A stretch of 64,000 nt of DNA from Candidatus Altimarinota bacterium (GCA_028689205.1 JAQTWP010000005.1:1-64000); one strand, 5' to 3'; shown: positions 7,652 through 56,194, counted from the stretch's first letter. Translations and numbers: made by a program. Notes: generated by a model from the letters alone, not told the origin.

Positions 7652-8857
7652 TTATTCAAATCTTAGAGCATCTATTGGTTTCAATCTTGCTGCTTTTCTA
7701 GCTGGTAGAATACCAAATACTATTCAAATCATAACTACACTTCAGAATGCCATAAATATTGAATTGGTCGTTATTACTGAGGTTAGTAGACTTTTGATAG
7801 CATTAACTATAACGAAACTCAGCGCAACTCATATTCATCATGCGACTACACTTATAAGTAAAGCTTCAATAAGAAACTGCATTAATATGTCCGTCTTAGT
7901 AGCTCATATTGCTTTACGAATACCGATTTCTCTAGTTCTTTCTGTAACAGAAACAAGCATTATATTCATTACTCATATTCATCCGACCAATAATGAAATC
8001 ATAGCAATTCAAGCTAGAAACATAGTCATTGTACCAGTTACTGCAGTTATTGAAGAAAGCATTTCAGACATTGAACTTACAGAAAAAGGAGCATCAGCTG
8101 AGTCTTTGGTTTTTGTATATTTAAGAAGCTCACTGGTAATGTATGTTTGATAAAAATCTGTTTTTGTTGAATCATCAACTTCAATATCAATTGATGAATA
8201 ATAATGAGTTCCTATAATTTTATTCATTACAGTACTAATGGGTAAGAATATTCTTCTATTAGCCTGTGAATTATCCTGAAGTGTTCAGACAACTGTATAA
8301 ATCCCATCTTCAAGTTTAATTTCTTTCCCTATTGGATCAATTGTTCCTGAACCAAATGCATCTGTAGTTATAGTATATCATACAACGGCAACTTTTTTAT
8401 TAGCTTTAATATCTTCGTCAGTAATGAATCTTCAATTAGAAAGCTCTATTCATTTAATATCTTTATAAAGACTTTCTACTCAAACAATACTTGAATTCGT
8501 ATTATAAGTTCAATAAATAAATTGTTTAGAAGTTGTTACAGTTGGAGAGACTTTTTTTACTCATGGAATACTTGCTACAAAATTAATAAATCCATCATCT
8601 AAAAGGTCACTTGATGATCATCATCATTGGACTCAGCCAACTTTTGAAGTATTAGATCAACCAGGACTAACTGTTATTAGATTGGCACCCATGCTATTGA
8701 ATCTATCAGTAATTGAGGAGGATGTCCCTTCTCATATTGCCAGCATTGTTATTATAGAAAAAACTCAGATAATAATACCTAGCATACTTAGTGCTGACCT
8801 AAGTTTATTACTCCATAGAGCGGCTATCGCAGATGTGAAATATTCAGTTAATGCCAT
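7652..8857 (-). CDS. MacB-type ABC transporter permease
   Basis: A 401-aa permease with MacB_PCD and FtsX domains. TM1 lies at about 17-40 after the typical ALWSNKLRSALSMLGI start. A large extracytoplasmic region (45-270) contains the FINFVASIPGVKKVSPT core. TMs 2-4 follow at about 280-385, with the FtsX signature [20 protein letters not shown] and ARKAARLKPIDALRFE at the end. It would transmit ATPase-driven conformational change to the adaptor. The cognate ATPase (9538-10209) is split from it by a GIY-YIG gene with repeats. Confidence 0.93.
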
Positions 8858-8883
8858 AATTTAGTTTTTAGTTAAAAGTTTGA

Positions 8884-9040
8884 ATTTGTCATTCCTAACA
8901 TCGTTTCTTGTTATTCTCGTCAAAATTGGAATTCAGAATTAATTATATCCTCAATTTTTGTCATTCCGCACTTCAAGGTGAATTGAATTTTATTCAAGAG
9001 AGTGACAACCTGGGTTGTGATGCGGAATCCAGGATAATTA
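8884..9040. repeat. dRS3-like repeat block left of the GIY-YIG gene
   Basis: The block has two TGTCATTCC-type motifs (8887, 8959) and a long inverted repeat TTCCGCA...TGCGGAA (about 8963-9026) around AAGGTGAATTG/TTCAAGAGAGTGACAACC. It matches the style of repeats at 1-240, 9360-9500, 18396 and 19266. No coding capacity. Confidence 0.55.
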
Positions 9041-23255: not shown

Positions 23256-23302
23256 ATTCAATTATAAATCTTATGGAATTCTGATATATAAAACAAAAAG
23301 TT

Positions 23303-23587
23303 ATGGAAACTTGGAAGTCATATTTTCTAAAATTCGATATAGAAAATGATGATTATTATCCAATGGTAAAATTATCAGAAGAAGTATGAGAATTATCAGA
23401 AGCATTCTTGAATTATAAATGAAAATCAAGACCTGCTAAATCCAAACTAAAATCTAAAGACTTATTAAAAGAAGAATTAGCGGATGAATTATCAGACGTT
23501 ATTTGAACAGTTATACTTATGGCTGATGAACTCGGAATTGATCTAGAAAAAACAATTGAGAGAAAATGGTTTGATAAGAATAAGTAA
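23303..23587 (+). CDS. MazG-like nucleotide pyrophosphohydrolase
   Basis: A 94-aa protein of the MazG/all-alpha NTP-PPase superfamily. The metal-binding pattern is KLSEEVGELSEAFL (about 25-38) and EELADELSDVIGTVILMADELGID (about 62-85), i.e. ExxE and ExxD. It would hydrolyse noncanonical or stress-related nucleotides to NMP and PPi. 47 nt after gatB. Confidence 0.88.
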
Positions 23588-23695: not shown

Positions 23696-24886
23696 ATGAA
23701 AGCTTTATACGTTATTTTTTTTGTACCACTTACTTTAATTTTAGTTACTTCCTGTACAGTCCAAAGCGAAGATACTTGAAATAATGATTCGACAATAACA
23801 GAGCAAACTAGTATGGATAGTACTCAAAATATCTCAGTTTTTGTAGATTCTAAAGAACAAAAATGATTTGTTTCTTTGGATAACTGAACAAAGGTTGATA
23901 TTAATAAACTTAAGGAAAGTCCAGATATTATTACTACTGTAGATTGAGAAGATGATTGTGTAAGTAGTATTGTCAATTATGAAGAATCAATTCAAGACTG
24001 AGTTATATTAAAACCACAAACTTTAGACGTTACACTAGATCTTACTAAGATTGGTCAATGAGATGATCTCGCCAAATTAACACAATCTAGAATAGAAACA
24101 CTAAAAACTCTTGTAGATGGAGAATTATATGAATGAGTAAAAATGAATCCAGGAGATTCAATGATATTAAGATTCATATGAACAATTGATTATTGAATTA
24201 ATTGAAAGAATCTTCCATTAAATGACAAAATAAGTATCAAATTATCAGAAAAAGTTGGTAAATCTGTTAAGATTTCGAATATTGAATGTGTAAAAAATAA
24301 AAGAAAAAAACTTATTTATCTAAAAATTAATAGTGAAAATATTTCAATTGATAATTGAGATGATATAGTAAAAAAGAATAAAAATTATAATATCAAGAAT
24401 GAAGTTAATTCAACTCAAAAATTCGAAGTTGCAGATACTGATAGTTTGATAAATATTGTTACAAAAGAATTTGATATGAGATCAGAAAATGATAAATATG
24501 CTAAATGATCATATATTCTCGAATTCCTAGACCAATCAGATATACTAGATTCCAAAGTTTGAAATGTTAATACTTTTATTTTTACTGATGCTAATTTTCA
24601 ACTTCATCCTAATTTTTTGAAGAATTATGCTAATCCATATAATATAAAACTTGATGAAGTATGAGATTTTTCACCCGATGTATACAATGCTCATCCTCAA
24701 TCCTTTTCTAGTTTTTATAGATATCTTGCGACTGACCCGTATATAACTAGTATTAAACAAAAATGTGCTAAAAATAATTCTCTATATTTAATTGGAACTA
24801 AAAGCTGAACTAATAAATACTTTAATAATATTTTAGAGATTTTTTATACTAAACTACTTCCAAATTGTAAAATAATATTTAATTAA
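23696..24886 (+). CDS. Lipoprotein of the protease locus
   Basis: A 396-aa lipoprotein: signal 1-19 and lipobox ILVTSC with Cys20. The mature N-terminus is Ser/Thr/Asn-rich, then mixed alpha/beta. The middle (about 255-310) reads YILEFLDQSDILDSK...NTFIFTDANFQ, which resembles the strand-Asp-x-Ser strand and later TD strand of von Willebrand A folds; this is tentative. Four cysteines lie in the mature part. First of three closely packed genes (12-nt gap, then 1 nt), so probably a partner of the coiled-coil membrane protein and the protease. Confidence 0.85.
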
Positions 24887-24898
24887 CAAAAACAAAAA

Positions 24899-26746
24899 AT
24901 GATTGCAGAAATATTTCAGGAATGAGAAAACTACTTCCAAACTTATCTAAATGACGTTCTAAAACTTAGAGCAAAAAATCTAGAAAAATGACAACCTTTT
25001 AATACTGTTGACAAAGATATTCAAGATAGTGCTTATAATACGCTTATTTCTGATCATATTTCAGAATACAATCAGAAAAAACTATCAATTGAAAATGAAA
25101 TTAAAAAAGTCGAACTTACGATTAATAAAATCAATATTCAATATAATCAAAAAATAAAAGCTCTTGGTTTGTGAGATTCTTCTAATGCAACTCAGATAGT
25201 TGATGTTAAAAAAATGCTTGAAACGAATAAAAGTAAAATTCTTTCTCTAGAAAGTGAATTAAGAGATTTATTTAATGATTTGAATAGTATTAAGAATAAT
25301 TTTGATACTTGAATTAGACAAGCAACCAATCTACAACAAGAGATTTTTAATTCTCTTAAATTATATAGAAATAAATTAGATTTATTATTAACTTCTAATG
25401 ATAAAGAATTAAAAGATTATATTGAAGAAAGAAAAAAAGTTCTTCATGATGAATGTAATATTTTTTCAAAATCTTTAATCTCAAAACTTGATGAATATAA
25501 GGAAGCCTTGATAAGTGATTTAGAAATATATAGACAAAACAAACAAAAGGAATTTGATGATGTTTATAATATAAATGCTTATCTTAAAACATGAGTTAAA
25601 ATGGAAGAAAAAACATCTAAAATCAAAAGTATAAAAGACAAGATAGAAAATGTTAAAACTCATTTAGTAGATACTAATTCAAAAGTTTTTATAAAAAATA
25701 TTTCATGGCTTTTACTACTTTTACTAGTTTCTCTTTATGATTATATTTTCTTGAATAAAATATTTGTTGATATATTCGATGTTCAAGGTTGAGATCCACA
25801 AGGCCTAAAAGATATGCTTTTTGGTGTAATTTCTTGGCTTAATCTTCTATCCGGTTGAGTTCTTCTTCTTCTTGTATTCCTATATACAATGTGATCAAAA
25901 GTATATGAAAAATGATCAAAAATTGAATGAGTATTCATTAAAATGTTGCTTATTTTTATAGTTCTTTGTTTAGTTGTATTCAGTGTTGTAGATATTAAGT
26001 TGTGATGAAATTGAGAAATAATATATAAATTCGTACAAACAGAATGAGTATTTATAGAATTCATTCTAAGATTGCTTATGCTTCCAGTTTTACTTGTTTG
26101 AGATTTTATTTTATTAAAGATGATTATCTGGGAAGATTTTTATTTATGAGATATAATTTTTAAAATATTTCTTTCGCCTTTTTATCTTATATATCTAACA
26201 TTTCAACTTTTCGTAAGTACTTTTAATTATCTTACTTTGTGATTGTTAATTGAGAAAAAAAGAAAAAAAGTTCTTGAGTTAAATTTATTAAATGAGGAAA
26301 ATATCAAAAAATCAATAAATCCGAACATTTTATTTGATATTAATCTTGCTTGAATTATTTTGAATGAAAAATCAATTGAGCCTATGGATTGACAGTATAT
26401 TTCAACTGATTCATTAAGTAATACTCTACCAAGTATTTCAGAATGATTAAAGAATTCTTTCTCAGATTTAAGTAAAATAAATGATTTAGTCAAAACTATT
26501 CAAGTTGATATTAATGATAAAATTAGATGATATTCAGAGATAAGTGTTAAAGAAAAAGCTGACCAAAAAATAAAAATTGATCAACTTAAAACCGAACAAA
26601 CTAATTTTTTACAAAGTTATATAGATTCAAGAAGTAAATTAATAGCTAATCTTCAAACTTCTAATGAATTACTTAATGAAATACAATCTTCTCTAAAAAA
26701 ATGAATAACTAGCTGATATAAAAAATATATTCTATCAAACATATAA
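24899..26746 (+). CDS. Large coiled-coil polytopic membrane protein
   Basis: A 615-aa protein. Residues 1-255 are long Lys/Asn/Leu-rich heptads (coiled coil) with no signal. Five to six TM segments follow at about 258-450, including KNISWLLLLLLVSLYDYIF and a WEDFYLGDII loop. Residues 455-615 form a second helical or coiled-coil region ending in a basic tail. No known family recognised. Both long coiled-coil ends would face the same side if the TM count is even. Tightly coupled to the protease gene (1 nt gap), so it may scaffold that protein. Confidence 0.85.
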
Positions 26747-26747
26747 A

Positions 26748-28895
26748 ATGGCAAAACATATTGAAGAACAAAGTCCCTGGGTTAATGAAGAGTCCAATAT
26801 TGCTTCAGATTCCCTTTATGAAAGTAATATTGGTGAAATTGGTTATAATGATTATCAAATAGCTTCGAATAAAAAAACTATTAAAAATCCAATTTCATCT
26901 TCTCAACTTTGAGATCCAAGTACTACTACCAAAATTCCTTCAAGTTCTGTATGGAAAGAGTTTTTAAAATTCTTAGCTTTTTTGCTTCTGATAATTGGAA
27001 TTGTTTTTTTTATTGCTTATTTATTTAATAAAAACGCACCAACTACTAATTACAGATGAATTATCAAAAAAACTGATATTAACAAACTTAATTCAAAAGA
27101 TTATATTACCGAAGATATTGATGATGAATACTATGAAATAAATACAACTAATAAGGATATTATAAATAACAGCGCAGTTGAGAAGGATTCATTTTTTGAA
27201 TTACAAGCTGCACCTATAAATAATCTTCCAACAAATAGTTGTTCTTGAGCGGATGATTGGGATAAAAAAGCATTATGAGATAATGAATTCGTAGATGATT
27301 ATATTCAAAACAGTAAAAAAATTACAAAAGTAGCAATAATTGATACTTGAATTAATACGAATTTAATTGATTTTAAAGATAATATAGATACAAAAAATTC
27401 AATAAATATTGTAGAACCAAAAGAATCCATAGATGATAAAAATTGACATTGAACAAACATTGCTCTTATAATTCATAGATATGTAAGCACTACTAATTTT
27501 GTTATAATAAAAGCTAATTCAAAAGATAGTAAAAAAATATCATACATTGACACTATAAAATCTATTAATTATGCAATAAAACAAAAACCAGATGTTATTA
27601 ATATAAGTTTTGGTTGAGATATTAAAAAAATTAAACCTCTTCAAAATTCTATATCTAGAGCCAATTCTATTTGAATTATTATTGTAGTTTCTTGATGAAA
27701 TTCTAATTCCGATAAAATTAATCATTTCCCAACCGCATATTCTTGAGTGATAACTACATGAAGTTTTAATGATAAAAATTCAATTTCTGAATTTTCAAAT
27801 AAAACTTCTGATTTTAATTTTCCTGGAGAATGTATATCTACAGCCAATAATGAATTTGTTAACGGAAACAGTTATTCTGCACCAATTCTTTCTGCTACTA
27901 TATTAATGATTAAAATGTTTATTCCTGCAGGAACTTGAAATATTTATTATTCAGATTTAATGAAATCAAATAGTAATAATATAGGTTGATTATTAATTCT
28001 AAGTATTCCCAAATTATTGAATATTTCAGACGATAGTGATGAATATATCAAAAACTTAGAATGAATAAAAAAAGATATAAATAAAACGAGCTTATTTCTT
28101 GATGATTTTAAAGAAAGTATAACCATAGATTCATCTCTTGATTGATATGAAAAAGCTTTGAATACTTTCAAATCTCAATTCAATAAGACGCAAAACGATA
28201 TATTAACAAAATTATCAAGATTAAAAAAGATTTTCAATAAAAAATGAATTACTCTAAAAAACGATGATTTAATTATTGCTGAAATTAATAATGATTTAGC
28301 AGTTGTTAGGGCGTTTTTAGAGTGAGATAAAGTAATTCTAGATATAACATGAGAAAAAAAGCTAGCGCAAACTCTGTGAGTAGATTCTTGTATTGAAAAC
28401 ACCAAAAATATTAAGTGTTGAGAGGGTAGTGGTTCAATATCTAATAAATGTATGAATAAATTCGCTTGATGAAAAAATCTTGTTTGTTGAGTACTAGTTC
28501 CTATTATCAAAGCTTGAACTCAACTTCCTGCGGTATGAAGTTGAAAATATGTAACAATTCTTAATGATCAAGTTAATTTACCAATTTCTATTATTGAATG
28601 AGAAAGCTTTATTTCAAGAGATAATAAACAAATTTGAAAAGTTATCCTAGAAAAATTACCAAGGAAATCTGCCTGAGAAGCTTGATGAAATGTTAATTTT
28701 ATGATTGATTCAGCTTGAACTCTTTCTGTAAAAGTTATAGACATTAATGATAATAATAATGAAGTTCAATCAAGAATAGAAAAACTTCTAAGTACCGAAA
28801 GTTCTAATCAAATAAATTGAGATTTACTAAAAAATACAGAAAAAATAAATGAAATCCAGAATATTCTTGAATTATCCTTAATAAAACTTAATTAA
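26748..28895 (+). CDS. Membrane-anchored subtilisin-like protease fused to an Hsp70-type substrate-binding domain
   Basis: A 715-aa protein. A disordered N-terminus (1-70) precedes one TM (72-93). A peptidase S8 domain (about 190-395) has the full triad: Asp199 in VAIIDTG, His234 in NGHGTN, Ser375 in GNSYSAP, and oxyanion Asn318 in SGGN. A helical linker (430-515) follows. Residues 528-670 align by eye with the DnaK substrate-binding beta domain: VILDITGEKKLAQTLG, GVLVPIIKAGTQLP, DNKQIGKVIL and VNFMIDSAGTLSVKVIDIND. A ~30-residue insert holds cysteines 548, 557, 568 and 580. No Hsp70 ATPase domain is present. Fused function (substrate capture plus cleavage outside the cell) is inference. Confidence 0.88.
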
Positions 28896-28938: not shown

Positions 28939-28972
28939 AAAAAATTACTTTGTAAATCAAAGTAATTTTTTT
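28939..28972 (+). terminator. Intrinsic terminator of the protease operon
   Basis: A 10-bp perfect stem AATTACTTTG / CAAAGTAATT with a 5-nt loop, then a T-run. Confidence 0.9.
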
Positions 28973-29023
28973 ATACTAGAGGTATTAATTCAAACAAATT
29001 TTATTTAACTTTTAAATTTATAT

Positions 29024-29881
29024 ATGGCAATAATTAATTTTAGGTCAGCTTACGAAGCTATATTCAAATCATTCAATGTTTCTGCAGATACAGAATTAGT
29101 ATCCAAACTAGAATCCGATTGAATTCAAAAAATGATAATAATTAAAAGATCATGGTTTTTCGGATTATTCATTTCTTGGATGTTCGTGTTAATGTTTATT
29201 ATAATGATAGCGAATTCATATTTAATTTATGTTAATTTTGCTAATTTTACAGTTTCGTGAATACTTATATCTGTACTTATATTCAATATACTTTATCGGA
29301 TATTTTCAGTTTTTTTATATTTTTCAAAATTCAAAAAAATATATTGAGTAAGAAGTGTGATAGTAGATACAAAAGTAATCAAAGAACATTTAAATGATTG
29401 AGATTTAGCTTTTTCAAAATTTTTTAATCAAACTATTTTTAATTATTTTATACTTGTTTTAATTACGTTATTTACCGCTTATGAAATAGTTTTTGTTTAT
29501 TGATTTAACGAAGTAGGTTTTTTATGATGATTGAATATAATTTTGCTTATTGTACAAATGTTTTTATCTACAAAATTCAAAAAAAGAATGTTGGATCTTG
29601 AAATGGATTTTGCCGTAGTTATCCCTTGAAAGATTATACTATATAATCAAAGTAATCTTTCTAGAGATGTACAAACTATTAATTCTGAAAAAATTAAAAC
29701 AATTACAAGTAAACATGCAAAACTTCTATGATCTATATTTGATTTTGGAGAAATTACAATACTTACTGAATGAGATGAAGCTAATATGTGAGAAATGACA
29801 CTTCAGTATATTGCTTGTCCATCAGAAACTGTTTATGAAATAAATGAATTACTTAGGATGAGTGAAAATAAATGAGAATAA
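29024..29881 (+). CDS. Polytopic membrane protein with a PH-like C-terminal domain
   Basis: A 285-aa protein. After a cytosolic N-terminus (1-42), four TM segments lie at about 43-67, 75-100, 140-160 and 168-188. The C-terminal soluble part (200-285) has the strand pattern SKHAKLLGSIFDFGEITILTEG...MTLQYIACPSETVYEIN, typical of bacterial PH (bPH2/YdbT-like) domains. Role unknown. Own transcription unit after the protease terminator and 33 nt before the HD gene. Confidence 0.82.
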
Positions 29882-29914: not shown

Positions 29915-31054
29915 ATGATTTGATACCAAATTGGTCTGATATTCAGATGAATATCAATATACCGCTGGAATAACTTTCCTAGAATTGAAACGATTTCTAC
30001 CAATGATAATCTCGCATTTGTGCTTCATACTGTTATGGTTCTTGCTTCTATTCTTGAAGAAAAAGAATGAAAAAAGGTTGATTTAGGTTATATTTTCAAA
30101 AAAACTCTATTTGAATCTTTTGATACTTATATTCTCTCAGATATTAATTCTGATGTACAATATAGAATTAAAAAAAAGAACGCAGCAATGTTTACTCTTC
30201 TTCAAGAAAAAGTAAATAAATTCATGTCCAATCTCGAACTTCCAGAAAAAATAAAAGAAGATATCAAGTTCATAAAAGATAATAAATCAAATCCAAAATA
30301 TGAATTAGAACATTCACTATTCCAATTCGCAAAATTATGGGTTGCTTATTATGAAGCTTACTTTAATGGTAAAATATATAATGATGTATATGAACCAATT
30401 CTATGTAATATGAAAGAAAGAATTAATAAAAAAGAAAATGCAATTTTTCTCAAATATTTGAATGTTGATAAGCAGGAAAATGAATTAGAAAAATATTTAC
30501 TTAATATTCGTCGTTTACAATTCAATTTTAGATGGAATAGAATGAAAAGAAAATTCCCAGTTTCTGTTATGTCTCATTTATATATTTGTTTTTTCTTATC
30601 ATATTTAATAGGTAATATTGAATGAAAAAGTGAAGAAGAAGTTCTAAAATTAATGAAAATATCATTATTCCATGATATTCCAGAGGCGATTACAGGTGAT
30701 ATTGTAACTCCTACCAAAAAAGCTGTTAAATGATTCGATGTTATACTTGCTGAAGTAGAAAAAGATATGCTTGAAGAATACTTACTTGTTTATATTAATA
30801 AATACAAATTCAAGAATGAATATACTCAATTAATGCTTGAGCCATTTGATTGAGAACTAGGTAAACTTGCAAAAGTAGCTGATATTTTTTCTGCTTTATT
30901 CGAAGCTAGAATAGAGAATAGTCCTGAATACAGCAAAACTTATCAAAATATCAAAAGATTCCTACATACAATACCTTATACTTCTATTAATTATATTCTC
31001 AAATTCTGAGTAGATTACTTCGATGATAATATTGAAGAAATGATTCATTTATAA
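29915..31054 (+). CDS. HD-domain protein (YfbR/HD_3-like phosphohydrolase)
   Basis: A 379-aa cytosolic protein. The first half has FVLHTVMVLASILEEKEG (near 33), an HD-like start. The second half has MSHLYICFFLSYL and SLFHDIPEAITGDIVTPTKK (about 235-260), the HD motif and ensuing DIPE as in YfbR-type 5'-nucleotidases, and LAKVADIFSALFEAR with the distal Asp. Two HD-like halves suggest duplication. Substrate unknown. Confidence 0.82.
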
Positions 31055-31606: not shown

Positions 31607-32542
31607 ATGAAAACAAGTTTTTGTGCATTACTTTTTGAAAAAGAAATAAGAAGAGTCGATATGTATGTATCGGCTCTTTTTAAAGATAAATCAAGAACGT
31701 ATATCCAGCGCCTAATAGAAAAAGAGTGTATTATGATAAATAATAAAATAGCATCTAAAAACGATAAAGTTAGAAGATGAGATGAACTTTCTGTTACCTT
31801 CGAAACTGATAAAATGACTATTGAATCAGAAAATATCCCTCTTGAGATAATCTATGAAAATGAAGACTTCGCAATTGTGAACAAGGAAGCCTGAATTAAT
31901 GTTCATCCTGTTCCATGATTCTGAGGTAATTCTTGAACTATGGTTAATGCACTTCTACATCATATGAAATGATTATCAGTTATAGGTTGAATAGAAAGAC
32001 CTTGAATAGTACATAGACTTGATAAGGATACCTCGGGAGTTATTATTATAGCAAAAAGCGACAGAAGTATGCATTCGATACAAGTTCTTATGAATAAGAG
32101 ACTTGTATCAAAAACTTATCTTGCAGTTGTTGTTGGTATTATAAAAGATAGGGAAGGGTATATAGAATCCTACATAGGTAGAGATCAAAATGATAGAAAG
32201 ATTATGACAGTTGTTAATCCAACCAATCCTAAACTAGCTAAAACAAAGTTCAAGGTTCTATGATATATTGATAACGCGTATTCCCTAGTAGAGGTTGACT
32301 TGCTTACTTGAAGAACTCATCAGATAAGAGTCCATTTCTCTAGTATCGGTTATCCAATAATTGGTGACAAAACGTATGGTATTCCCAAGATTAATGAAGA
32401 AATATTCAATGAATATTGATTGTCTAGACAATTCCTACATGCTTATAAAATAGCTTTTGATTTATTTGGTAAGTCATATTCTTTTACTTGAGAGCTTAAG
32501 AAAGATTTGAAGTCAATATATAATAAAGTAAAGTTTATTTAA
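31607..32542 (+). CDS. RluA/RluD-family pseudouridine synthase
   Basis: A 311-aa enzyme with an N-terminal S4 domain (about 15-75, MYVSALFKDKSRTYIQRLIEKECIMIN) and the RluA catalytic domain. Catalytic motif GIVHRLDKDTSG holds the Asp nucleophile. INVHPVPG, LTGRTHQIRVHF and IIGDKTYG are also conserved. It would modify large-subunit rRNA, but the target position cannot be read from sequence. Overlaps the convergent 32539 gene by 4 nt. Confidence 0.94.
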
Positions 32543-33357
32543 GAAAATACTGCAGTTCAGAGATAATAGAATTTTATATTTTTGTTTATCTGGAATATAT
32601 TTTTGTTTAATCTTCAATCTAGATCATCTGTCTCTTTGAATTTATATTCATAAGAATTGTCAAAGGCAGAAATACTGACGTTCAAATTAACTAATCATTC
32701 ACTTAATAAATTCATTCAAACTCAACAATTTATTCAATTTCAAGTCTTACTACTTACTCAGATTGTACATATATCCTGATAAATTTTATCCATAGAAGGC
32801 ATGCTTGAATTTCAGATTATTCAGTTTCAGTTATCAGCCAGTGCAAAGTGTAGGATTATTTTATCTCTGACTAATCTTATATGAATTCATAGATATGCTT
32901 CATTTGTTGAATGATCCATGGAATTTTTCATCATTTCAGCTAATATTACCATAAACGTAGTCAAATAAGATTTATTTCTTTTTAAGGAAATAAACATATC
33001 TTCAAGTAATTTGAATATATGTTTTTTTATTGTTTGGTATTGCTTTCTTCTTGATTTATTAGTATTTTCTCAGTCATCTGTTCAAAAAATGTATGTAGGG
33101 AAAGAAAAATTTATTACTCATTCTAAATCTTCTTCTTGATTAAAAAAATATTCCGTTTCACCTAATTCTGTAACTCTTATTACTTTTCAACTTGGTCAAG
33201 ATACATGATATTTTTTCAATTGTTCATTTACTCTATTATTTGTAGAACTTTGCACAAATAAATTTTGTCATCAATTTAAAAATGGTTTTAAATCATTTTT
33301 TATTCAATCTAAGACATTCAGAGGAATTATCTTTTCATTTCATTGGTTATCATTCAT
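32539..33357 (-). CDS. GHKL-fold ATPase, histidine-kinase-like
   Basis: A 272-aa soluble protein. The C-terminal half has the GHKL ATP site: N box VILAEMMKNSMDHST (about 140), G1 ADNGNGI (about 175), and GNGINCGVGMNLLSEG (about 210) as the G2/lid. No DHp domain, so not a classical sensor kinase. The N-terminal 130 residues are unrecognised. It could be an RsbW-like regulator. It ends the second MacAB-type operon, 18 nt after the ATPase gene. Confidence 0.75.
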
Positions 33358-45914: not shown

Positions 45915-48251
45915 ATGAAAATAAAATATAAATTACCAATTTTATATGCTCTAATATGAGTTATAGTTACACTTGGACTAGTAAATATTTTTTCCAATTC
46001 TGAAAAAACTATTATAACTAATATTGAAGATCGTTTTATCCAAACAATAAATAATAAATCATCTGAGATTGATAAATTCCTTTATGATCAGCTTGTTTGA
46101 CTAAAGTCTCTTTCTCTAAATTCTACACTTCAACAATCTATTTCTGATTATCAAAAAAACAAGAATATTTCTTCTATAAATATAGAAAACATATTAAAAG
46201 ATTTCCTTATAATTAATAAGACTTTTGATTATGCAGAGATAATTGATGCTAGCTGAACCGTATTGAATTGAAATGAAATATTATGAAAAGAAAATGTAGA
46301 TAAGTCTTTTGTTGTAAGAGAATCTATAATTAAAAGAATATGAAAAAGTGATGCTGGAGAAAAATATTATCAAGACATTACAAGTGAAATTAAAAATAAT
46401 TCAGTTGGATTATCATATATTATTGAGGATTTAGCTAGGGATTCAGATGGCAATACCTATCTTACTTATATAGTTCCGGTTTTGAAAAGTAATGAAAATA
46501 ATGAAATTAAACTTATATGAATAATTAAAGCCAGATTATCAATTGAGAATATTTCTAATATTTTCGTTGATTTACCTAATTTAGGAAATTCACTTAAAGC
46601 CTATATATATAATCCAAAATGAGAAATTATATCTTCTTTAGATAGAAATAATTATCTTACAAAATTAAGTAATATAAATGCTTCACAAGATAATATAATT
46701 AAAAAAACTCTTGTTCAAGAAGAAGTTCTAGATTGAGATAGTGTTGTTGCAGTTTATAAAAATATGAAAGGATATAAATCTTTTTCTTGATTGTGATGGA
46801 CTATAAAAATGACTCAATCAAAGAATGAATTATTCCAATCTCTTGCCTGATTAAAACAAACTTCAATATACGTTGTCGCATTTATTGTATTTTCTGTAAT
46901 GTTTTTAGCTGCGATAATACAATGGCAATTTATTAATCCTCTTAATAGATTACTAGGGAAAATACGTAAATTCTCAACAGGAGATGATAATGTAGTAATT
47001 GATATTGAGAGCTCAGATGAAATATGAGTTCTAGCATGAGCCTTCAATGATATGATTTACAAAATAAGAGAAAAAACAAAAATACTTAATGAATATAAGA
47101 ATGTTATTGATGCAACTAGTCTTGTGTCAAAAGTTGATCAAAGTTGAAATTTTATATATGTTAATGATATTTTTTGTAATAGTGCAGGATGTGAATTAAA
47201 AGAAATTATTGGGCAACCTCATCAAATAATAAGGCATCCAGATATTTGACCAGAAATATTTAAAGATATTGAGAAATCAATGAAAGCTAAAGAAATATGG
47301 AAATGAGTAATGAAAAACAGAAGAAAAGATGAAAGTGAATATTGGCTTCAATCTGTAATTGCACCAATTTTGGATATGAACAATAATATTGTTGAAATGA
47401 TACTTATTGAAACAGATATTACAGAACTTGAAAAAACTAAACAACAACTAGAAGTTTCATATAATAAACTTCAAGAATCGACAGATGAATTAGTTACTAA
47501 AGAAAGAATTTCAAAAGAATTCGAACTTGCGACTAAGATCCAAGAAGATTTTATGCCTAGACCTTGAGAATTTGACATTGAATGAGTTGAAGTTCATTGT
47601 TGACTAACGTCTGCAACAGAAATCTGATGAGATTTATACGATATCGTAAAAAGCAAGGAAGATCCATCTAAAACAATTTTTTATATATGAGATGTTACAG
47701 GCCATTGACTTATAGCTTGAATTATGATGGCAATTTGTAATTCTCTAATATATAGCCTTGCTCAAAGTTGAAAAAATTCAATTAGAGATATTATTATAAA
47801 ACTTAATAATACATTATTTCATAAACTACCAAGTAAAGTATTTATTACTCTTCTGCTTCTTCAATATGATTCAGCAACTAATAAATTATCTTACGCTTGA
47901 GCTTGACATGAAAGACTTCTGATATATCGTAAAAAGATAGATGAGATAGAAGAAATTAAAACTTGATGAAGTGCAATTTGAATGTTTGCAGATGCTACAA
48001 ATGATGTAAAAGTCAATGAACTTAATCTTGAATCGTGAGATATTGTTCTTATGTATACTGACTGAATCCCAGAAGCTCGCAATCCAGATGAACAATTTTA
48101 TTGAATGGAAAAATTCAAACAAAGTTTCAAAAGTAATGCACATAGGAATGTCCAGGCAATGTATGAATGAATACTTAAAGATCTTTATGATTTCATCAAC
48201 TGAGCAGAAATTCTTGATGATATAACATTTTTTTTAATAAGGAAAAAATAA
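45915..48251 (+). CDS. Membrane PAS-PP2C (RsbU/SpoIIE-like) phosphatase
   Basis: A 778-aa sensor phosphatase. TM1 about 7-27, extracytoplasmic Cache-like sensor to about 315, TM2 317-340, HAMP (NPLNRLLGKIRKFSTG), PAS (about 390-505, with IGQPHQIIRHPDIGPEIF), a coiled coil, and a SpoIIE PP2C domain from about 545. The Mg2+ site is GGDLYDIV (about 570) and GDVTGHGLIAGIMMA. It should reactivate the STAS protein when the sensor binds its unknown ligand. Confidence 0.95.
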
Positions 48252-51530: not shown

Positions 51531-53129
51531 ATGAATTTTCTTAAAAACAATAATAATTTTAAATTATCTGCATTTACCCTAGTTGAATTAATAGTGGTAA
51601 TAGTTATTCTAGCTATATTATCCACTATAGCATTTCTATCATTTAATACCTATTCATCTTCTGCAAGAGATTCATTAAGAGTTACAAGTATTTCTGATAT
51701 CCAAAAATGATTGGAGCTATACAATCTTAATGCATGAAATTTTCCCCAACCAGAAAATATAAGTTGAACTTGAGTAATTAATTGAATTACATTGAATTAT
51801 GTCTGAGAGATATCAAATTTAATATCAAGAAAAATTAATATTTCATCTTCTCCAAAAGACCCACTTTCTAATAATGATTATATTTATTGAACAACTTTTG
51901 ATTATAAGAATTATCAAATAGCAACAGTTTTAGAAAACTCTCAAACAAATAATAAAATAATAGAATTAACTTATGCGGATAACTGAAACAGGGCAAAAGT
52001 TAGTTGAAATTACAATTGACTTATTAAATTCAGCTCTTGAAGTATAAAATATATAATTAATCTTCCAGGTCTTATATTCAATAGTTGATGAACAATTGAT
52101 ATTATTAATCAAGAACCTTATTTCATAATTAATAATTATGATAATTTACCATATAAATTGACTTCTAATAGTATTATTAATAATAAAACTAAAATTGAAA
52201 CAATTAAGGAATTAACTTGAAAAGATGTTATTCTAACTTGAGTTATAATTAATGAAACTCAAGATCAATTAGATTATTTATCTAATTTACTTTGATATGA
52301 TAAAATCTTGGTTTGAAAGAAAATTTTTTGAGAAAAATATATTATGACCATAGTTAATCTAAAAAAATTATGAATTTATTATTGATATCCAAGTTCACTT
52401 AATAATGTTTCAAATTGATATCAACTTGATAAAGTTGTCAATGATCTTAATAAATTTGACACTATAATACTCTGAGAATGATTAGAAAAAATATGACATT
52501 CTGATCATATTAATACGCAGAATATTTTATCTTGATGAACAGATTGGTATGGTACGCGGCAATGATATAAATGAGAGCCGTATTGATATATATCATTAAT
52601 GCAATCTACGTGATCAATTTTTACTTCAGTTGATGAATGGAAAGCTTTATGAATTAAATGAATATTTTTAGATGAAGCTTGATATGATTATCTAATTCCA
52701 ACTATTAGCTCAATTGAAATAAATGCTAGAATTCATCAAAACGATGTTATAAATTATATTCATCAGAAATGATTAAAAATTATTATAAATTCATGGAATG
52801 TAGATGATGTTTTTTGAACTCTTAATTGAGAGGCTATATCTACTATTAATTCAAATGATTCATACTTAATGGAAAGCTTTGTTTATAATTGGAATGTAGC
52901 TTGATTCTATGATTATGATAATCAATTAATAAAAATAAATAGTGCAAAAAATTATAAAAATAATTTATGAATTAAGCTTTACTGTGTTTGATTATTACCT
53001 AATTTTATAGATATAACTCAAGATAGAATCAATACAATGTATTCTAAGTCTTTATCAAGTTGTGATTATATTCAAATTACAGAAAAAACTTTTTGAGCAA
53101 CCAATCCTATTCTTAATTCTTATTATTAA
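51531..53129 (+). CDS. Type IV prepilin-like protein with a C-terminal glycosidase-like barrel
   Basis: A 532-aa protein. The N-terminus is a prepilin: SAFTLVELIVVIVILAILS (residues 13-31) with the F-T-L-V-E core and Glu5, then a pilin-like head up to about 170. From about 278 on, a (beta/alpha)-barrel-like part begins LGIYYGYPSSL and has DTIILGEGLEK, KGIFLDEAGYDY and a GLKIIINSWNVDDVFG strand; this matches spherulin-4/GH114-type putative glycosidases. Possible catalytic Glu/Asp in FLDEAG. A pilus- or surface-displayed enzyme is inference. Confidence 0.85.
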
Positions 53130-53137
53130 TATAACTT

Positions 53138-56100
53138 ATGAATTTTAAAAGAGATTACATTTTTAAAACAAAACAAGCTCCTTTAAATTCACTTTTTTTA
53201 AAAAAGAATGAATTTAAAGGTTTTACAATAATTGAGCTTACTATTGTAATGGTTATTACTTCTATATTAACTACAATTTGATTTATTGTTTATTCTTGAC
53301 ATCTTTCTTCTGCAAGAGATGCTAATCGTAGTATGGATATGGAGAGTCTTATAGGTTGACTTAGAACATCTAAAATTCGTAATTTCACATACCCTAAATT
53401 AAATGATTATTTTTCAATTGCTAATATGTGAAGCTGATATGTAATGCAATGAAAACTAGATGATAAAATTGATATTGAATGAATTAATAATGTTCAATCA
53501 GACCCTTTACATGAAATTAAATATATATATTCTACAACGAGTAATTGAAGGAATTTTCAAATATGAATGACTTTAGAAAATTGATGAACTCCAATTGCTT
53601 TTGTTGATTGAGATTATAAAACTATTACAAAAAGAATGTTTCCTTCATTAATATTTGCATTAAATTGAAGTTGAATTCTTGATGTTCAGTCTTGAGTTGG
53701 TTCTTATACTTCCTATAGAGATTATTTCGTAGTTAATAAATGAACTTACAATCTTCCATATGATTTTAAAACAGGAAATCCAATTAAGACAGCATTAAAT
53801 TTTGATAACATAGTTAATGAGGATTGAGTAATAATTACATGAGCTAATAGTTATAAAAGTTGTGATGAGATTTATAATGCAAATAAATCTATGTGACCCT
53901 GAGAATACCAATTAATGTCATCGCCCTATATAATGAGTGATACTATATGTTTTTATATATCACCACTTCTAGTATTTGATGAAAATACTAATCTTTCTAC
54001 TCTTGATGACACTACTTTAAAAAATCTATTTTCTGAAACATTAACCTGAGTTGTTGAGAACACGCTAACAGATAAATGGGATATTAATTGATGTAGTTGA
54101 GGCTTAATGAATGTTAATACGTGAACCTTTTTATGATGAAATCAAACATTATCTAATATAGTGTTATCATCAAATACAATATATAAAGTTCCAGCAGGGA
54201 ATTATAATTTAATATGAAACACACAATTAAATACCTGACATATATCTTTTGCAAGTTGAAGTAGTTGTATTTGATTAATTTGAGCTTGAGTTTGATCTAC
54301 AATTTTCACTACTAATTTAACTTGAGGTTGAATATCTAATTACGATTGAGTTATTAATGCAAGATATACAAAAAATATAATTGTAAGCTGATTATCTCTT
54401 ACTAATTCAAGAATAATTAATAGATATAATTATTGAATTATGGTAAGTAATTGAGCTAATAATCTTACTTTGAAAGATATTAATTCATCTAATTCTCAAT
54501 CATGATGAATATCACTTGATTCATATAATGATCATAATTATATGTATAATATAAACTCTTTTAATAATGGTCAGAATTGAATTACAATTTCATATTATGC
54601 GAATTACAATAAATTAGATAATATAAAGAGTTATTCTAATTCCTGAGCATGATTATTGGTTTCTACAAGTGTCGGTAATAATTTATTTAATATAAATACT
54701 TATTCTAATTGAAATTATTGAATTAATTTAGATTCATCTTCTAATTTAAATACATTAGATAATATAAAAAGTTATCTTAATTGATGAAACGGTATTTGAA
54801 TAACTTATAATTCAGACCAGAATACAATAAGTTGAGCACTTAGTTATTCTAATAATTTGAACTGAATACTTATTGATTCTAACTGATCATGAAATATCTT
54901 GAATAATGTTAATTCTTATTCAAATAGTCAAATATGAATCATCTTAGATTCTACTAAAAACACTAAGATTAATAATTCAATAATTTATTCAAATTGAAGT
55001 GATGGAATTAATATTTTCTCTTGAATATCAAATACATTAAGTTGAATAACAACTTATTCAAATTGAAATAATGGTGTTAATATATATTTTTGAATTACAA
55101 ATACATTTAGTTGAATTATAAGTTATTCTAATGTTTCTAATTGACTTTATATGGATACTAGTAGTTGAAATATTATAAATAATACCACATCTAATTGAAA
55201 TGGTAATGCTTGAATTTTACTTAATAAATCAACATATAATACATTAAGTTGATTAATTACTTATTCTAATAGTAATAACTGAATTAATTTTTATAATGTA
55301 AGTCAATATAATAATGCTAACAACATTACTTCTTATTTAAATACCTGAGCTTGAATTAATTTTGATAACGGATCTTTATCTAGTAACTATAATTCAATAA
55401 ATAAATTCAATTCATATTCAAATACTAATTGAATTTATATTTGATCATCTTCTTATAATAATATATTTAATTGAAATATTTATAATAACATTCAAAGATG
55501 AATATTTATTTATTCTATATGAAATATTTTAAATAATTTGAATATATATAATAATAATACCTCAAATACTCTTTATTATGGTTCTATTGAAATCGATGCT
55601 TCTTCAAACGGTAATAAATATAATTCATTAAATAATTTGAATATTTATAATAACTCAAAAAATTGAATGGTTATAAATGCTAATAGCGACAGTAATTTAT
55701 TTAGTAATTTATCAATATTTAATAATTCTTGAGCATGAGTGTATGTTTCATCTTGAGTTGGAACATGAACATTTAATAATTTAAATACCTATAATAATAT
55801 TAGTTGAGTAGAAGATTACGCAAATGTACTTACTAATAAATATTATTGAACTTTTAAATATTTTTGAAATGATTGAAATTCTAATATTACATATCTTAAA
55901 GTATGAACTTTGTCTACATTATGATTCTTAGATTGAACAATAAATACAACATGAACAATGTCTTGTGATTACCATAATAATCCTAACAATGCTTTTTATT
56001 ACTGAGCTAGCTGTATCAATAGATGATCTATTTGAAGTCTTGTAGCACCAATTTTGAATTATACTTATTGAACTTTAACATCCAAACAACAAAGACCAGT

Positions 56101-56194
56101 TAAATGGAATTGAACAGCTTGGGAATTATATTGAACAGCTTGAGTTGATTATAATACATGAAGTTATATATGACAATGGTTGATAATTAAATAA
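53138..56194 (+). CDS. Type IV prepilin-like protein with a large beta-helix
   Basis: A 1018-aa protein. Prepilin signature KGFTIIELTIVMVITSILTT (about 28-47) after an unusually long leader of 27 residues. The pilin head (60-250) is followed by a right-handed beta-helix (about 324-905) of ~22-residue turns rich in Asn/Ser/Gly (NSYSNSxxGIxxDSSxxNxxxN), as in NosD/pectate-lyase PbH1 repeats. A short C-terminal domain ends YIGQWLIIK. It overlaps no gene and begins 8 nt after the preceding pilin. Adhesin or glycan-binding role is inference. Confidence 0.9.

What the first reader, a model, noticed from the sequence alone, without database searches (positions are those of the whole stretch)
23696..28895. 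Three-gene surface module: lipoprotein, coiled-coil membrane scaffold, protease-chaperone
Gaps are 12 and 1 nt and one strong terminator follows, so the three genes form one unit. The lipoprotein has a possible VWA-like core; the second protein has 5-6 TMs between two long coiled coils; neither has a recognised family. Inference: they assemble a membrane-spanning complex around the protease, possibly for contact with, or digestion of, a host cell.
Basis: partly seen in the sequence, partly recalled or inferred. Interest (0 to 1): 0.8.

Follow-up and report, generated by a model that had tools for sequence, protein, structure and literature searches.

The report
Surface protease with Hsp70 peptide clamp
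Three neighbouring genes, found together in two distantly related bacteria of the Gracilibacteria/Absconditabacteria type, encode an outer lipoprotein, a membrane protein with coiled-coil tails, and a membrane-anchored protease carrying the peptide-gripping half of an Hsp70 chaperone without its ATP-driven motor, probably to catch and cut proteins outside the cell.

Summary
The three genes are real (TGA = Gly), 12 and 1 nt apart, and followed by a strong hairpin-T terminator. The third is a membrane-anchored S8 subtilase (intact Asp/His/Asn/Ser) whose C-terminus is an Hsp70 substrate-binding beta-domain without the ATPase domain. Genes 1 and 2 match no known family. In 353 class genomes the module occurs in one other: G074, placed in another family, with the same order (gaps 21 and 2 nt). 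Full-length similarity there is strong for protease-SBD (z 39), clear for the lipoprotein (z 11.7) and weak for the coil protein (z 3.5). All six protease cysteines match; four sit in an insertion in the Hsp70 substrate arch. The sister genus has gatB directly followed by the downstream gene, so module and preceding MazG gene are accessory. Corrections: no evidence for VWA; four transmembrane helices are shared, so both coiled coils probably lie in the cytoplasm; host contact is untested. Best reading: an ATP-independent, outward-facing capture-and-cut protease, perhaps for scavenging protein; in G074 a nuclease gene follows 25 nt later. Function is inference. It is not an HtrA substitute: G000 has two HtrA-like genes. 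Predicted structures of proteins 1 and 2 were uninformative.

The parts
23696..24886 (+). Gene 1: orphan lipoprotein, 396 aa, lipobox LVTSC with Cys20; no family
   Evidence: no Pfam hit up to E 10; homologue P0010 in G074, BLAST 6e-10, window-shuffle z 11.7, none of 300 shuffles reach
24899..26746 (+). Gene 2: 615 aa, N-terminal helical/coiled coil (1-268), four conserved TM helices, a fifth membrane-associated helix, C-terminal coil (about 500-614); both coils predicted cytoplasmic
   Evidence: same architecture in P0009 of G074, sequence similarity weak (z 3.5; TM core alone z 1.9); no family
26748..28895 (+). Gene 3: 715 aa, cytoplasmic tail 1-74, one TM 75-93 (N-in), S8 subtilase 192-397 (D199, H234, N318, S375), helical linker about 430-520, Hsp70 substrate-binding beta-domain about 535-690 with a 4-Cys insertion
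   Evidence: homologue P0008 30% identical over 643 columns, BLAST 1e-57, z 39
27342..27872 (+). DNA from the codon of the S8 catalytic Asp199 to that of Ser375
   Evidence: aligned with the solved intracellular subtilase 7y6m; positions
28350..28817 (+). Hsp70 substrate-binding beta-domain (residues about 535-690) including the Cys-rich insertion (C548, C557, C568, C580)
   Evidence: Pfam HSP70, NCBIfam prok_dnaK 3.2e-11; homologue's domain matches solved SBDs at 6.9e-14; alignment
28943..28974 (+). Intrinsic terminator: perfect 10-bp AT-rich hairpin plus T run
23273..23587 (+). MazG-like gene, part of the same lineage-specific insertion between gatB and the downstream membrane gene; 108 nt before gene 1, probably not part of the module
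   Evidence: Pfam MazG-like 4.7e-8; absent at this site in sister genus G011

Best explanation
The three genes form one transcription unit that makes an accessory cell-envelope proteolysis system. Gene 3 is anchored by one TM helix with its S8 protease and an Hsp70-type substrate-binding beta-domain outside the cell. There is no ATPase domain and only a short remnant of the lid, so the clamp would act as an open, ATP-independent docking groove that catches extended or unfolded peptide stretches and holds them near the subtilase site. A disulfide-braced insertion stiffens or reshapes the arch over that groove. Gene 1 is an outward-facing lipoprotein partner. Gene 2 is a four-TM protein whose coiled-coil arms lie in the cytoplasm and would organise or regulate the protease, perhaps through its cytoplasmic tail. 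The most likely use is digestion of proteins outside the cell (nutrient scavenging, possibly from a host). Shown: ORFs, spacing, terminator, domain content, catalytic residues, conserved cysteines, gene order repeated in a second genome, accessory distribution. Inferred: topology, disulfides, peptide binding, complex formation, and the role.
For: Same three-gene order in G074 with gaps 21 and 2 nt; strong protease-SBD and clear lipoprotein homology. Catalytic D/H/N/S intact in both. SBD recognised independently in both proteins, with no NBD match; groove positions stay similar (I401/F426/Q433/V436 of DnaK = V545/Y601/Q608/L611). All six cysteines of P0003 align with all six of P0008, as expected for an extracytoplasmic protein. 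In G074 a TM-anchored SNase gene follows the protease after 25 nt on the same strand, which fits extracellular digestion. Only 2 of 353 class genomes carry it, which fits an accessory rather than a housekeeping role.
Against: No structure, no expression data and no proof of contact between the proteins; both monomer models are uninformative. Gene 2 homology is weak by sequence. The SNase neighbour is seen in one genome only. The SBD could bind a partner or the protein itself rather than substrate. DnaK residue numbers and the E. coli DnaK sequence in the alignment come from memory (the solved-structure match does not).
Confidence: 0.42

Rival explanations
1. Envelope quality control: an HtrA-like protease-chaperone that recognises misfolded extracytoplasmic proteins through the SBD and degrades them, with gene 2 reporting to the cytoplasm.
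For: The layout N-in TM - serine protease - peptide-binding domain is that of membrane-anchored HtrA, with S8 in place of trypsin-type and SBD in place of PDZ. G074 has no detectable Trypsin_2 protease.
Against: G000 has two Trypsin_2/HtrA-like genes, and G075 (same genus as G074) has neither HtrA nor module. A housekeeping function would not be confined to 2 of 353 genomes.
Confidence: 0.22
2. Signalling or maturation system: the protease cleaves one dedicated partner (for instance the lipoprotein or an adhesin), as dentilisin PrtP cleaves PrcA, and gene 2 passes the signal across the membrane.
For: Dentilisin is a three-gene operon of lipoproteins and a subtilase forming a surface complex in which PrtP cleaves PrcA (PMC8167434). 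Large cytoplasmic coils in gene 2 suggest a cytoplasmic output.
Against: Genes 1 and 2 hit no family, so no relation to PrcA/PrcB was found; an Hsp70 clamp suggests broad rather than dedicated substrates.
Confidence: 0.2
3. Defence or inter-bacterial conflict module (patchy, accessory, protease plus membrane sensor).
For: Patchy distribution and insertion between core genes; PADLOC 'subtilase' hit for P0008.
Against: The protease is predicted extracytoplasmic (TM, paired cysteines); no defence genes recognised nearby; the PADLOC hit for P0003 is only E 0.044; no relatives in the phage, plasmid or viral collections beyond generic S8.
Confidence: 0.08
4. Two unrelated orphan genes that happen to precede a protease gene (no functional unit).
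For: Gene 2 homology with P0009 is weak (z 3.5; TM core alone z 1.9).
Against: Same order, orientation and near-overlap in a genome whose module is only about 25-30% identical; clear lipoprotein homology found only next to clear protease-SBD homology.
Confidence: 0.05

Closest known systems
Peptidase family S8 (subtilases), incl. mycosins of type VII secretion
   Same: S8 catalytic core with intact Asp/His/Asn/Ser; single-TM membrane anchor as in mycosins
   Different: N-terminal instead of C-terminal anchor; no ESX genes found beside it; TIGR03921 score 66.8 against a cut-off of 278.75; carries a C-terminal Hsp70 SBD
Hsp70/DnaK substrate-binding domain
   Same: Beta-domain region with groove positions and the G.V-L..LP-D..G.L.V...D pattern
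   Different: No nucleotide-binding domain, lid reduced to a short helical stretch, about 30-residue insertion with four cysteines in the L1,2 arch, predicted outside the cell
HtrA/DegP (protease-chaperone with PDZ)
   Same: Membrane anchor, extracytoplasmic serine protease, appended peptide-binding domain
   Different: Different protease fold and different peptide-binding domain; HtrA-like genes coexist in G000
Dentilisin operon prcB-prcA-prtP of Treponema denticola
   Same: Three-gene operon starting with a lipoprotein and ending with a subtilase; surface protease complex (PMC8167434)
   Different: Middle partner is a lipoprotein, not a polytopic coil protein; no Hsp70 domain is described for PrtP; NCBIfam PrtP model 31 bits against a cut-off of 300

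Membership tests
Peptidase family S8 | S8 domain above the Pfam gathering score with Asp/His/Ser triad and oxyanion Asn | tested here: met
   96.2 bits vs 21.8; D199, H234, N318, S375 aligned to 7y6m
Peptidase family S8 | Proteolytic activity | not testable with these tools
   needs purified protein
Hsp70 substrate-binding domain | Sequence match to the SBD-beta region | tested here: met
   Pfam HSP70 32.3 and 54.5 bits vs 20.6, profile 395-526; solved SBDs 6.9e-14
Hsp70 chaperone (full) | N-terminal ATPase (nucleotide-binding) domain | tested here: not met
   no match to profile positions 1-394 in P0003 or P0008; the region is S8 instead
Hsp70 chaperone (full) | Full alpha-helical lid | tested here: not met
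   only about 25-60 residues follow the beta-domain
Type VII secretion mycosin | Above NCBIfam TIGR03921 cut-off and ESX neighbours | tested here: not met
   66.8 bits vs 278.75; flanking genes are gatB, MazG, an orphan membrane gene and YfbR-HD
HtrA/DegP | Trypsin_2 protease plus PDZ | tested here: not met
   no such domains in P0003
Dentilisin complex | PrtP model above cut-off; PrcA/PrcB homologues | tested here: not met
   31 bits vs 300; genes 1 and 2 hit no family
VWA domain (gene 1) | Profile match or Rossmann-like fold with MIDAS motif | tested here: inconclusive
   no Pfam match up to E 10, no solved relative up to E 10, model pLDDT 38.6

The most novel reading that the evidence does not exclude
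An Hsp70 peptide clamp that has lost its ATPase motor and moved outside the cell, with a disulfide-braced arch, serves as the substrate-delivery domain of a membrane-anchored subtilase, within a conserved three-protein trans-envelope system whose other two members are new protein families. This would be a mode of Hsp70-domain use independent of ATP.
Probability: 0.35. Interest if true: 0.8.

Novelty: new variant of a known kind. Interest (0 to 1): 0.6.

Why it matters
Hsp70 substrate-binding domains are normally driven by an attached ATPase, which cannot easily work outside the cell. A protease that has kept only the gripping half, and reinforced it with cysteines, would show how a chaperone clamp can be reused without ATP. 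It also gives a concrete, testable candidate for how bacteria of the Gracilibacteria type, which lack many biosynthetic pathways, obtain amino acids from outside or from partner cells.

Tried and rejected
VWA fold for gene 1: no profile match and a useless model. Two AlphaFold2 monomers with two-row alignments gave pLDDT 38.6 and 38.8, so no fold search was run. HtrA replacement: rejected because G000 has HtrA-like genes. Phage or plasmid origin: only generic S8 hits in phages and plasmids, nothing in viral contigs. Recent import from standard-code bacteria: not supported, since 74-87% of module glycines are TGA in both genomes, similar to or above neighbouring genes. Other subtilases of the class examined as possible hidden modules scored far below the two module proteins with the pair profile, and no lipoprotein or coil partner was found in the loci fetched. 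Weak class-wide BLAST hits to the lipoprotein (E 1e-4 to 1e-2) were not reproduced by the pair profile. An apparent small 'SBD-only' ORF in G000 turned out to be its ordinary DnaK. EMC3/TMCO1, apolipoprotein and ZorA hits for P0009 are below cut-off or weak and involve coiled coil. Literature searches found no description of a subtilase-Hsp70 SBD fusion.

Full report
Observation. The window uses the SR1/Gracilibacteria code (TGA = Gly). Three same-strand ORFs of 396, 615 and 715 aa lie at 23696-24886, 24899-26746 and 26748-28895, separated by 12 and 1 nt. Markov shuffles of the same DNA give open runs of at most 131 codons. A perfect 10-bp hairpin with a T run ends the unit (28943-28974).

What the proteins are. 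Gene 1 is a lipoprotein with a lipobox and no family in Pfam, NCBIfam, PHROGs or PADLOC. Gene 2 has no family either. Hydropathy gives four strong TM segments and a fifth, weaker one. In the homologue from G074 the fifth is an amphipathic, positively charged helix (moment 0.65-0.73), so four TMs are conserved. With a 268-residue N-terminal coil and no signal sequence, an even number of TMs puts both coils in the cytoplasm (inference). Gene 3 is an S8 subtilase with one N-terminal TM and a C-terminal Hsp70 domain. D199, H234, N318 and S375 align with the catalytic and oxyanion residues of a solved subtilase. The Hsp70 match covers only the substrate-binding region; no ATPase domain is present.

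Relatives. Searches of the class genomes (353, or 341) with the single proteins and with two-row profiles found the module in one other genome, G074, of another family. There, next to rpoC, lie a lipoprotein (401 aa), a coil-TM-coil protein (527 aa) and an S8-SBD protein (731 aa), with gaps of 21 and 2 nt. Against window-shuffled controls the pairs score z 11.7 (lipoprotein), 3.5 (coil protein) and 39 (protease); the TM core of the coil protein alone scores only 1.9. Homology of gene 2 therefore rests mainly on position and architecture. In the sister genus G011, gatB is followed after about 20 nt by the homologue of the gene downstream of the module. The MazG gene and the module are thus a lineage-specific block in G000. 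G075, in the same genus as G074, lacks the module too. G074 is listed with 6% contamination, so the assignment of that contig to its family was not independently checked; the contig does use code 25 throughout. Glycine is written TGA at 74-87% in all six module genes, similar to or above their neighbours, so the module has long lived in code-25 genomes.

The Hsp70 part. The homologue's domain matches solved Hsp70 SBDs at 6.9e-14, independently of P0003. In the alignment the DnaK groove positions I401, F426, Q433 and V436 correspond to V545, Y601, Q608 and L611 (DnaK numbers and the E. coli sequence from memory). Right after the first of these, where DnaK has its L1,2 arch, both proteins carry an insertion with four cysteines. 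The proteins have exactly six cysteines each and all six align, as expected for disulfides outside the cell. The lid is reduced to a short helical stretch.

How it probably works (inferred). The SBD would act as an open, ATP-free groove holding extended peptide stretches of a substrate close to the subtilase site; the lipoprotein assists outside, and gene 2 organises or senses from inside. In G074 a TM-anchored staphylococcal-nuclease gene follows after 25 nt, which suggests extracellular digestion. Rivals are envelope quality control and maturation of a dedicated partner. A pure HtrA replacement is unlikely because G000 has two HtrA-like genes and G075 has neither HtrA nor module.

Comparison with the known. 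S8 membership is met. Full Hsp70 membership is not met (no ATPase domain, no full lid). Mycosin, HtrA and dentilisin memberships are not met, though dentilisin is a useful functional comparison: a three-gene operon making a surface subtilase complex with lipoproteins (PMC8167434). Papers on Vampirococcus and on groundwater Gracilibacteria mention peptidases in general but no such module (PMC8080830, PMC11452946). No description of a subtilase-Hsp70 SBD fusion was found in the paper library; that is absence from one library, not proof of novelty.

Limits. No multimer prediction was possible. Both monomer models were too poor to use (pLDDT 38.6 and 38.8).

Noticed in passing
L108 (G074:C28) 8770-8910, minus strand: A very stable long hairpin (-43.5 kcal/mol, z -7.3) followed by a terminator-like stem lies between rpoC and the lipoprotein gene; possibly a structured leader or small RNA.
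   Followed up: partly
L108 2604-3713, minus strand: TM-anchored staphylococcal-nuclease-type protein 25 nt after the protease gene in G074, likely in the same transcript.
   Followed up: partly
window 53138-56194 and 51531-53129: Two large proteins with type IV pilin-type N-terminal methylation motifs; the 1018-aa one carries a right-handed beta-helix and 95 TGA glycines, perhaps a pilus-borne adhesin.
   Followed up: no
window 45915-48251 and 32539-33357: A HAMP-PAS-SpoIIE phosphatase and, separately, a stand-alone protein with a weak HATPase_c match: possible parts of a partner-switching regulator.
   Followed up: no
window 29915-31054: YfbR-like HD nucleotidase with an extra N-terminal region of about 190 residues.
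   Followed up: no
window 29024-29881: Membrane protein with no Pfam family, found in 26 of 27 genomes of the family; a core gene of unknown function that marks the empty site in G011.
   Followed up: partly
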